This document shows, in pieces, positions 12,201 through 15,947 of a stretch of DNA of 64,000 bases. This DNA comes from Spirochaetota bacterium. GTDB lineage: Bacteria > Spirochaetota > UBA4802 > JAFGDQ01. The position numbers were made by a program, and so were the translations under genes. The notes under the pieces were generated by a model. The model was not told where the DNA came from and did no database searches. It saw only the letters and a program-made list of their open reading frames with translations. The DNA lies in NCBI GenBank assembly GCA_016932015.1, contig JAFGDQ010000070.1, positions 62,001 through 126,000 on the forward strand, read 5' to 3'. Every line of letters begins with the position of its first letter. Positions within the stretch are counted from its first letter, which is position 1.

Positions 12201-12719
12201 TTATTTTTTTTGTTTCTTTAAAACTTCCAGAGCTTCCTTTAAGGCATGAACCGCAAGAGAAGCACAATGTTCATTCTCCTCAGGCAGCCCTCCCAGTGCG
12301 TCAAGAACATCATTAGGCGTCAATTTTTTTATTTCATTTATTTTTTTGCCCTTAATCATTTCCGCTACCATACCTCCGGATGCGATAGTCGGCCCGCAGC
12401 CGTCAGTTTCAAATCCGAGATCGACAATAACTTCCTCTGAAACTTTCAGAAAAAATTCCATTGAATCTCCGCACGATCCGTCAACTTTAGCACAAGAGTC
12501 CGCATTATCCACCGTGCGTTTGTTAACAGGCATTAAAAACAAATCTATAGTCTTATCGGAATACATTTCCCGCAGCTGTTCTATTGCAGTTTTTTTCCAT
12601 CTCTCATAATCTTCAGGAGAAGATTTGTCCTTGAATATCCCTATCCCCGCAAGGCTGTTTTCCGCCCAAATATCAAGATTACTCTCAAATTCTGCTGATA
12701 AATTTGTATTTTTCCCCAT
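12201..12719 (-). CDS. IscU/NifU N-terminal-like iron-sulfur scaffold protein
   Basis: DGSCGDSMEFFLKV, GFETDGCGPTIASGGMVAEMIKGK, ALGGLPEENEHCASLAVHALKEAL (three conserved Cys). Confidence 0.85.
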   Translation of the reverse strand: MGKNTNLSAEFESNLDIWAENSLAGIGIFKDKSSPEDYERWKKTAIEQLREMYSDKTIDLFLMPVNKRTVDNADSCAKVDGSCGDSMEFFLKVSEEVIVDLGFETDGCGPTIASGGMVAEMIKGKKINEIKKLTPNDVLDALGGLPEENEHCASLAVHALKEALEVLKKQKK

Positions 12720-12741: not shown

Positions 12742-13659
12742 TTATTTAAAGGCAGGCAAGTATGTCCTGTTCAATATTTTCTTCATATTTTTACTAAAAA
12801 TAATTCCCTGTACAATGCCCCTTATTGAACTCGTCACTGTCTTTACATAGACCTCATCAGCGGCCCTATTGTCAAAAGCAATTAATACTTCATCATCCCC
12901 GATTATAAACTGTTTTTTTGTTTTCTCTTCCGCTTTTTTTTCCTGGCTGATTATCACAGCATATTTTCTTTCCGCGTTTATTTCAAAGAATACTTCCTGA
13001 AAATCAGTAATGTTCATTTTTTCCGCATCACCATCATTAAATACGTTATATGACAAAGAAGCATTATTAACAGAAATATTATTCCTGTTCACCTCAACAA
13101 TATCTCCCTGTTTCGCTATAATTCTTCCTGCTGCCTCTTCTTCTCCATAGGAAAATAATACAATATCGCCTGTATCTGCACTGATTATGCCGGATTTATT
13201 TATAAGCAAATACTCTCCTTTTACTAATCCTGGATTCATATTGTCTGAAGTTATTCTGTCAATTGAGAAGAGTTTAGGAAAAAGCATACATGATAAAGTC
13301 AGTAAACCTGCGAATATAACTGCATACAGGAAATAAATAATTATGGAATTGAACCAGCGCAGGTTGAAAAATTTCTTTTTTGATGCAGTATATAATGCTT
13401 CCAGAGGAGAAATAATCCAGATTAACAAGTGCACACATAGAACAGGAAACAGAAAAAAAACGGAAAATTCTTTTCCATTCATAAATAAATAAAGCGGAAT
13501 TGCCAGAAGTGAAAAGATTCGCAGTACTGAATAAATCAGGCCTTTGATAAAATTACCGTTATACACCTGTCCAAGTCCCGTAAAAAAGAAAGAAAGGACA
13601 AAGGCAGAAAAAGGGCGCCTTTTAAAAGTAACTTCAGAACTTATTATATTGCTCTTCAT
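12742..13659 (-). CDS. S26 signal-peptidase-like membrane protein with N-terminal TM2-like region; predicted catalytically inactive
   Basis: N-terminal LSFFFTGLGQVYNGNFIKGLIY; ITSDNMNPGLVKGEYLLINK resembles SPase box B and GRIIAKQGDIVEV box D, but Ser->Asn and Lys->Gly. Confidence 0.7.
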   Translation of the reverse strand: MKSNIISSEVTFKRRPFSAFVLSFFFTGLGQVYNGNFIKGLIYSVLRIFSLLAIPLYLFMNGKEFSVFFLFPVLCVHLLIWIISPLEALYTASKKKFFNLRWFNSIIIYFLYAVIFAGLLTLSCMLFPKLFSIDRITSDNMNPGLVKGEYLLINKSGIISADTGDIVLFSYGEEEAAGRIIAKQGDIVEVNRNNISVNNASLSYNVFNDGDAEKMNITDFQEVFFEINAERKYAVIISQEKKAEEKTKKQFIIGDDEVLIAFDNRAADEVYVKTVTSSIRGIVQGIIFSKNMKKILNRTYLPAFK

Positions 13660-13755: not shown

Positions 13756-14415
13756 CTATAAACAGGATTCAATAAATTTTCTTATATTATCTTTTCCATG
13801 AAAAACACCGAAATGTCCTTCACACAACACATCCGCCTCAAGTGATATTAAGAATTCCAGAGAGGCATTATAGTCTTTCCTGTTTGAAAGCAGCAGATCA
13901 TTTAACGGTCCGTGAACATCCTGGGCAAACAGTATTTTTTTTTCATCAGAAACAACAGTAAGAACTGAGGATCCCGGGGAATGTCCCGGGGTATGATAAA
14001 AACCAATATCAAGATCCCCGACTTTAAAATTTTGCTCTCTATCTTGTACCTTAATGTCAACTGCTGTTTTCTGTATTGATGATCCATACCAGCCAGCTGC
14101 TGTTACCTCATTATCTCCTTTCTCCAAATAGAAAGCATCCAGTTCATGAGCAACGATACGGCAACCGGTTTCATTTCTAATCCTGTCTGCTCCGCCCGTA
14201 TGGTCATAATGACAATGAGTCAGGAAAAGATATTTCAGCATATCAGATGATACACCAGCGCTCCGGATATTATCCATAAGCTCCGTGTGCCCGTTGCCTG
14301 TACCGGCGTCTATAAGAGATGCTTCGTCATTGCATACAATCAGATATGCGGCAGCATCCTGTGAATGAGATTCCATGGAGCCGCCGACCTGAAAAACATT
14401 GGATGTGATTCGCAT
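13756..14415 (-). CDS. MBL-fold metallohydrolase (glyoxalase II-like)
   Basis: THCHYDHTGG, HTPGHSPGS, CEGHFG. Confidence 0.9.
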   Translation of the reverse strand: MRITSNVFQVGGSMESHSQDAAAYLIVCNDEASLIDAGTGNGHTELMDNIRSAGVSSDMLKYLFLTHCHYDHTGGADRIRNETGCRIVAHELDAFYLEKGDNEVTAAGWYGSSIQKTAVDIKVQDREQNFKVGDLDIGFYHTPGHSPGSSVLTVVSDEKKILFAQDVHGPLNDLLLSNRKDYNASLEFLISLEADVLCEGHFGVFHGKDNIRKFIESCL

Positions 14416-14522: not shown

Positions 14523-15875
14523 TTAAAGAGCTTTTTTTCTGCCGGCGAATTCCCGGTCCAGTATTTCCCATATTTTGTTTATATCAGGTTCTGTTTCAAT
14601 CGGTCTGTTCGCGAATTTGCTGTTCACCCCGTTAAGCGCTGACTCATGATAACCGATTTTAAATTCTGAAAATTTAAGACCGTGTGCTGTTGAAATTACA
14701 ATCACCCTGTCCTTTTTCTTTATCTTTTTCTGTTCGATCAGCTTAATTAGAGCCGCAAGCGCAACACCTGTATGAGGGCATGAGTAAAGCCCTGTAAGGT
14801 CTCCTAACGCCGCAGCATTGGCAAGTTCATCTTCGCTTGCCTGCTCAACAATACCGTCAAATTCGTTTAAAGCTCTTATTGCTTTCTGAACGGAAACCGG
14901 ATCTCCTATCTGAATCGCGGAGGCCAGAGTTTTTTCCGGCTGTATTGGATTGAATTTCTTAAAACCGGTCTGATAAGACAGATAAAGCGGATTAGCTTTC
15001 TCAGCCTGAGCAAGAACAATTCGCGGTGTCTTGTCAATAAGTCCGAGTTCTTTCATCATTTTAAAGCCATTACCCAGAGCAGACACATTACCGAGATTTC
15101 CTCCGGGAATAATAATTACATCAGGTACTTCCCAGTCGAACTGCTGAACTATTTCAACTGAAATGGACTTCTGGCCCTCAACACGAAGAGAATTCATTGA
15201 ATTAGCAAGATATATCTTGTTATCTTTAGTTATTTCCTTGACGATCTTCATGCAGCCGTCAAAATTTGTATCAAGAGAAAGCACAATAGAACCGTTCGCC
15301 ATAGGCTGCACAAGCTGTGCAGTAGAAATCTTGTTGCTTGGCAGAAACACTATGGAAGGAATTCCCGCGTAGGCGCAATAGGCTGCAAGCGCTGCGGAAG
15401 TATCTCCTGTTGACGCGCATGCAACTGCTTTAATATCGCGGCCTTTTTTAATCATTTCATTTACGACCGAAACAAGTACAGTCATTCCCAGATCCTTAAA
15501 TGAACCAGTGTGACTGTTGCCGCACATCTTGACCCACAGGTCCTGTACCCCAAGATATTCGCCCAGCCTTCTCGCCCAGAATAAATTTGTATTCCCTTCA
15601 AACATTGAAACAACATTGTCATTATCAACTTCGGGACAGACCCATTCTTTCTTGCCCCAGACTCCGCTTCCATAAGGCCAGGAAGTGGCGGCTGTCCGGC
15701 TCTCAAACAAAGCCTTCCATTCTTTGGGAGATTTCTTCTTAAGTCTGTCCATATCATGGCTTACTTCCAGCAGACTGCCGCATTTTTCGCATTCATATAC
15801 TACTTTATCAAGAGGATATTCAACATTACATCCTGAGATGCATTTAAATACTGCTTTGTATTCGTTATTATTCAT
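14523..15875 (-). CDS. thrC: Threonine synthase
   Basis: N-terminal zinc ribbon (C..C..CEKCG), PLP motif [27 protein letters not shown] at 15875 preferred over the ORF start at 15932. Confidence 0.92.
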
Positions 15876-15947
15876 ATAATGTATCTTATTAATTAAAATG
15901 AAGCCTGTTAGCCAGGCTTTACTGTAAAACAAATCCCGAACAAATAA

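What the first reader, a model, noticed from the sequence alone, without database searches (positions are those of the whole stretch)
12742..13659. Signal-peptidase-I-like membrane protein lacking both catalytic residues
Box B reads TSDNMNPGL where active enzymes have S-x-S-M-x-P-T-L, so the nucleophile Ser is Asn (AAT at 13240-13242). Box D reads GRIIAKQGD where active enzymes have KRVxxxPGD, so the general-base Lys is Gly. The fold-defining residues remain, and an N-terminal TM2-like region (GLGQVYNGNFIKG) is fused. Inference: a pseudoprotease with a substrate-binding or regulatory role.
Basis: partly seen in the sequence, partly recalled or inferred. Interest (0 to 1): 0.6.

Follow-up and report, generated by a model that had tools for sequence, protein, structure and literature searches.

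The report
Dead signal peptidase conserved in spirochaetes
This gene encodes a membrane protein built like the enzyme that trims export tags off bacterial proteins, but its two cutting residues are gone; most of the spirochaete order around it keeps the same dead version beside working copies, so it was probably kept for a job other than cutting.

Summary
It is a real S26 signal peptidase I homologue whose nucleophile Ser is Asn140 and general-base Lys is Gly178. The same genome holds three other S26 proteins with intact Ser/Lys.

The loss is not an error or a lone decayed copy. In one spirochaete order, 34 of 46 genomes carry a degenerate orthologue. Lys is absent in 34/34, the Ser position holds 11 residue types, and the Gly that packs against the catalytic Lys is absent in 33/33. 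The Arg after Lys is kept in 34/34, and box E Asp and Arg in 33/33. All 27 LepB copies compared are intact. One genus keeps a divergent orthologue with Ser and Lys but without that Gly.

The N-terminal fusion is not new: planctomycete and Omnitrophota proteins share the layout with intact dyads. The closest functional precedent is Streptococcus pyogenes SipA (top fold match; same Lys-to-Gly change), a dead signal peptidase essential for pilus assembly. Best reading: a non-cutting, membrane-anchored protein- or peptide-binding factor. Its partner is unknown, and gene neighbourhood does not reveal it. NCBI's family model would name it signal peptidase I, a likely misannotation.

The parts
12742..13659 (-). 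pseudo-signal-peptidase CDS, 305 aa, ATG at 13659, stop at 12742-12744
   Evidence: PF10502
13360..13659 (-). N-terminal membrane region (residues 1-100)
   Evidence: hydropathy, AF2 helices 16-25, 37-59, 66-94
13555..13578 (-). GLGQVYNG motif (residues 28-35); G28 and G30 invariant in the 26-row family alignment
13270..13344 (-). last membrane helix before the S26 domain (residues 106-130)
12796..13269 (-). S26-fold beta domain (residues 131-288); residues 203-246 are modelled with low confidence
13240..13242 (-). Asn140 at the place of the nucleophile Ser90 (E. coli numbering)
13126..13128 (-). Gly178 at the place of the general-base Lys145
13123..13125 (-). Arg179 (Arg146), invariant 34/34
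12874..12876 (-). Phe262 at the place of Gly272, the Gly that packs against the catalytic Lys; never Gly in the clade
   Evidence: structural role from PMC4049620
12865..12873 (-). Asp-Asn-Arg 263-265, remnant of box E; Asp and Arg invariant 33/33
13756..14415 (-). upstream neighbour: metallo-beta-lactamase-fold hydrolase, conserved next to the gene in 24 of 28 loci
14523..15932 (-). threonine synthase, part of the conserved block
12201..12719 (-). downstream neighbour: NifU-like scaffold protein, not found beside the gene in the relatives examined

Best explanation
It is a catalytically dead signal peptidase I paralogue (pseudo-SPase), vertically inherited and selectively maintained across one order of Spirochaetota. 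Its N-terminal helices anchor it in the inner membrane and hold the S26 beta domain on the outer face, by analogy with all SPase I (inferred, not shown). That domain most likely works like Streptococcus SipA: it binds a protein or peptide emerging at the membrane and holds or presents it without cutting, as an assembly factor, chaperone or scaffold. Shown by sequence: homology, loss of dyad and of Gly272, constraint on fold residues, order-wide retention, intact paralogues. Inferred: topology, and binding without cleavage. Unknown: the client. I put 'dead as a Ser/Lys protease' at about 0.93, 'kept for a function' at about 0.9, and 'SipA-like binding or assembly role' at about 0.5; the confidence below is for the whole statement.
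For: S26 homology. Lys absent 34/34, Gly272 absent 33/33, 11 residue types at the Ser position, against Arg146 34/34 and Asp273/Arg275 33/33; LepB controls 27/27 intact. On a family tree S90 needs 20 changes, K145 13, G272 14, R146 none. One group together with the two f3 orthologues, apart from all other S26 proteins sampled, SH-aLRT 100. Own genome holds three intact S26 proteins. AF2 model (pLDDT 73) has the S26 fold; top PDB match SipA 4n31 (E 1.6e-5), then LepB and SpsB. SipA has Ser to Asp, Lys to Gly, Gly272 to Asn, no peptidase activity, and is essential for pilus polymerisation (PMC4049620).
Against: No experiment and no partner. Fold similarity to SipA is not specific: active LepB and SpsB match nearly as well, and the TM-score on the whole query is only about 0.33. 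The old cleft is only partly conserved: the I86-equivalent is mostly aliphatic but Gln or His in one genus (read). In SipA itself a cleft-blocking mutation did not stop pilus assembly (PMC4049620). Five genomes of one genus lack the gene, so it is dispensable there.
Confidence: 0.5

Rival explanations
1. Scaffold reading: the S26 domain is a leftover stable beta module used as a structural or interface part of some inner-membrane complex; the former peptide cleft plays no part.
For: Most conserved residues are structural (Arg179, Asp263, Arg265, Tyr233, Pro143, Gly164), cleft-edge residues vary, and the cleft-blocking V99R mutant of SipA still assembled pili (PMC4049620).
Against: Does not explain why a peptide-binding fold in particular was kept; no complex known.
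Confidence: 0.3
2. It is still a protease with a rearranged or substrate-assisted active site.
For: A few orthologues keep Ser at the nucleophile position (5 of 34) and one genus (G009, G022) keeps Ser and Lys in an orthologue at the same place after thrC.
Against: No conserved Lys, Ser, His or Cys that could form a new pair: the invariant columns are S23, G28, G30, R179, Y233, D263, R265, and S23 lies in the membrane region. Even the Ser/Lys orthologues lack Gly272 (Ala or Pro).
Confidence: 0.07
3. A decaying gene without function.
For: Catalytic residues lost; the gene is missing in genus g8 (5 genomes) and seemingly broken into two frames in G199.
Against: Open frame in nearly all of 34 genomes over seven family-level groups, invariant fold residues at great sequence divergence (22-39% identity), conserved place on the chromosome.
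Confidence: 0.04

Closest known systems
Streptococcus pyogenes SipA (PDB 4n31, 4k8w), pilus-specific signal peptidase homologue
   Same: S26 fold; Ser and Lys both lost, Lys replaced by Gly in each; Gly272 equivalent lost in each; best Foldseek match of the model (PMC4049620).
   Different: SipA serves Gram-positive sortase pili and its Ser is Asp (here Asn). Here the host is a spirochaete, the protein carries a polytopic N-terminal region, the gene sits in an amino-acid biosynthesis block, and no client is known.
Staphylococcus aureus SpsA
   Same: Inactive SPase I paralogue lacking both catalytic residues beside an essential active SpsB (PMC12445088).
   Different: No role established there; Gram-positive; its sequence was not compared here.
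S26 proteins with the same N-terminal layout and intact dyad: Singulisphaera sp. GP187 (L071), Omnitrophota (L075)
   Same: Collinear homology including the GLGQxYxG motif (L071: 26% over 269 aa, E 8e-21).
   Different: They keep Ser, Lys, Gly272 and the whole of box E.
LepB-type signal peptidases of the same genome (L001, L002)
   Same: S26 domain with boxes B to E.
   Different: Intact dyad, no GLGQ N-terminal region, separate branch of the tree.

Membership tests
Type I signal peptidase (S26A) as an enzyme | S26 domain by curated profile | tested here: met
   PF10502 44.2 bits (cut-off 22.9), TIGR02227 49.4 (cut-off 47)
Type I signal peptidase (S26A) as an enzyme | catalytic Ser in box B | tested here: not met
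   Asn140; 29 of 34 orthologues are not Ser
Type I signal peptidase (S26A) as an enzyme | general-base Lys in box D | tested here: not met
   Gly178; 0 of 34 orthologues have Lys
Type I signal peptidase (S26A) as an enzyme | Gly272 and complete box E (GDNxxxSxDSR) | tested here: not met
   Phe262, and only D-N-R remains
Type I signal peptidase (S26A) as an enzyme | signal peptide cleavage | not testable with these tools
   needs an assay or lepB complementation
Catalytically dead SPase homologue (the SipA/SpsA kind) | S26 fold with both dyad residues replaced, alongside an intact SPase in the genome | tested here: met
Catalytically dead SPase homologue (the SipA/SpsA kind) | retained peptide-binding cleft (shown for SipA) | tested here: inconclusive
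   the model has the strands, but cleft-edge residues are only partly conserved; model coordinates could not be inspected
SipA proper | gene in a sortase/pilin operon | tested here: not met
   neighbours are hom, thrC, an MBL-fold hydrolase, an epimerase or a NifU-like gene
TM2 or DUF5683 domain | profile score over the curated cut-off | tested here: not met
   DUF5683 13.7 bits against 26.7; TM2 (PF05154) not reported

The most novel reading that the evidence does not exclude
A clade-specific, non-proteolytic signal-peptidase-like factor in diderm bacteria that carries out a step of envelope protein assembly by binding exported proteins, with a second S26 paralogue in the same order losing its dyad too: a SipA-type function evolved independently outside Gram-positives.
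Probability: 0.3. Interest if true: 0.6.

Novelty: new variant of a known kind. Interest (0 to 1): 0.38.

Why it matters
Dead signal peptidases with a job are known from very few cases (SipA is the clear one, in Gram-positive pili). An order-wide family in spirochaetes, with working enzymes alongside and a divergent Ser/Lys orthologue still present in one genus, would show that the signal peptidase fold has been reused for binding more than once. It also exposes an annotation trap: the score lies above NCBI's cut-off for signal peptidase I, so this gene would be counted as an active SPase although it almost surely is not.

Tried and rejected
Single-protein genome-contig scan found no relative and the 26-row alignment was too diverse for patterns; a 9-row alignment worked. 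Sequencing error or frameshift as the cause: rejected, since orthologues vary independently at the same sites. Alternative catalytic pair: rejected, no conserved candidate; K184, near box D, is not conserved. Functional link to the MBL hydrolase or the epimerase next door: not supported, since genus g8 has both without the pseudo-SPase, f7 genera g20 and g14 have it without the MBL gene, and the window's own family lacks the epimerase. Fusion as a novelty: rejected. f3 Ser/Lys orthologues as the sister branch of all degenerate ones: neither shown nor rejected (AU p 0.48, long branch). No paper found on pseudo-SPases in spirochaetes (open-access library only).

Full report
OBSERVATION. The reported coordinates hold an ORF on the minus strand, ATG at 13659, stop at 12742, 305 aa. 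Codons: AAT at 13240-13242, GGA at 13126-13128. It is a true S26 homologue: PF10502 E 2.6e-11, TIGR02227 'signal peptidase I' 49.4 bits, over NCBI's cut-off of 47. In E. coli numbering Ser90 is Asn and Lys145 is Gly; Ser88 is kept as Ser138.

HOST AND PARALOGUES. The window lies in a 4.4 Mb draft genome; named relatives carrying the gene are Spirochaetes MAGs such as RBG_13_51_14 and UBA5368, so the phylum is Spirochaetota. The genome has three other S26 proteins over the Pfam cut-off, of 219, 362 and 172 aa, each with Ser and Lys in place. Secretory cleavage therefore does not depend on the gene in question.

FAMILY. Searching 393 genomes of the phylum with a 26-row alignment, full-length relatives occur only in the window's order; other hits cover the S26 part or are ordinary peptidases. 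Of 46 genomes of that order, 34 carry the degenerate form, 2 (genus g10 of family f3) a divergent form with Ser and Lys, 1 a fragment at a contig end, and 9 none found: G004 and G013, the five genomes of genus g8, and two drafts of 69% and 73% completeness. A tree of 68 S26 proteins puts the 34 and the 2 together on one side of a branch with SH-aLRT 100, apart from LepB, the short S26 paralogues and the fused S26 proteins of other phyla.

WHAT IS LOST AND WHAT IS KEPT. In the 34 degenerate proteins the Lys145 column holds G14, A10, L5, V2, R, S, W and never K. The Ser90 column holds A8, R7, S5, N4, D3, T2 and one each of L, C, M, V, K. Gly272 is never Gly (33 readable). Arg146 is 34/34, Asp273 and Arg275 33/33. 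LepB of the same order: Ser, Lys and Gly272 27/27. By column entropy the Ser and Gly272 columns rank with the freer part of the domain (74th and 73rd percentile) while R179, Y233, D263 and R265 do not vary at all; parsimony needs 20 changes at the Ser column, 13 at Lys, 14 at Gly272, none at Arg146. [quoted passage not shown] in SipA it is Asn and the Lys is Gly (PMC4049620). The same coupled loss here is good evidence that the site no longer serves catalysis. The two f3 proteins keep Ser and Lys but have Ala or Pro at Gly272, so their activity is uncertain too.

ARCHITECTURE. Hydropathy and the AlphaFold2 model (11-row alignment, pLDDT 73, pTM 0.60; residues 203-246 unreliable) give N-terminal membrane helices followed by the S26 beta domain. 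Foldseek against the PDB returns SipA first (4n31, E 1.6e-5), then E. coli LepB and S. aureus SpsB; a profile search gives SpsB 4e-13 and SipA 2e-12. The ranking of SipA over active enzymes is not decisive. The N-terminal GLGQxYNG region is found alone in small membrane proteins and fused to S26 with intact dyads in Singulisphaera, other Planctomycetota and Omnitrophota; the window protein and the Singulisphaera protein align over 269 residues (26%, E 8e-21). The fusion is thus shared with proteins that look active.

CONTEXT. In most relatives the order hom - thrC - MBL hydrolase - this gene - NAD-dependent epimerase is conserved: MBL directly upstream in 24 of 28 loci, the epimerase downstream in 14 of 21. 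In the window the epimerase is replaced by a NifU-like gene. The neighbours are not obligate partners: genus g8 has MBL and epimerase without this gene, some f7 genera have it without MBL, and the window's family lacks the epimerase. The block looks like inherited position, not a functional cassette. In f3 (G009) the Ser/Lys form sits directly after thrC, which supports orthology.

MECHANISM. Shown: homology, loss of the catalytic apparatus across the clade, constraint on the fold, intact paralogues. Inferred: outer-face location of the S26 domain; binding of a polypeptide without cleavage, as proposed for SipA, which has no peptidase activity but is essential for pilus polymerisation (PMC4049620). 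S. aureus SpsA is another inactive homologue (PMC12445088). Against a cleft-based role: cleft residues are only partly kept here, and blocking SipA's cleft did not stop its function, so a scaffold role is a serious rival.

VERDICT. The kind is known; the family, its host group and its order-wide conservation are, as far as the held papers show, not described. I rate it a new variant of a known kind, interest 0.38.

Noticed in passing
G000:C96:27693-28154 (L003) and orthologues L035, L129-L133, L150-L169: A second, short (about 175 aa) S26 paralogue is spread over the same order and also loses its dyad: of 27 copies, Lys is kept in 14 and lost in 13, Ser lost in 8. The window genome's own copy is intact.
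   Followed up: partly
L114:1603-2427 (G009) and L115:1-796 (G022): A divergent orthologue with Ser and Lys present but Gly272 replaced by Ala or Pro; in G009 it lies directly after thrC. It could be a retained or a regained dyad.
   Followed up: partly
G199:C310:24802-25649 (L121): The orthologue appears broken into two frames with a stop; may be an assembly error or real decay.
   Followed up: no
L073:4024-4950 (Bacteroidota MAG): An S26 protein with the same N-terminal layout keeps Ser but has Phe in place of the Lys, with box E complete: possibly another, independent dead signal peptidase.
   Followed up: no
window 13756-14415, minus strand: MBL-fold hydrolase with distant similarity to subclass B3 metallo-beta-lactamases (106 bits, far under the cut-off of 240); conserved in 35 of 46 genomes of the order. 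Substrate unknown.
   Followed up: partly
window 12201-12719, minus strand: NifU-like scaffold protein with about 50 extra N-terminal residues before the NifU_N domain, unlike short IscU/NifU models.
   Followed up: no
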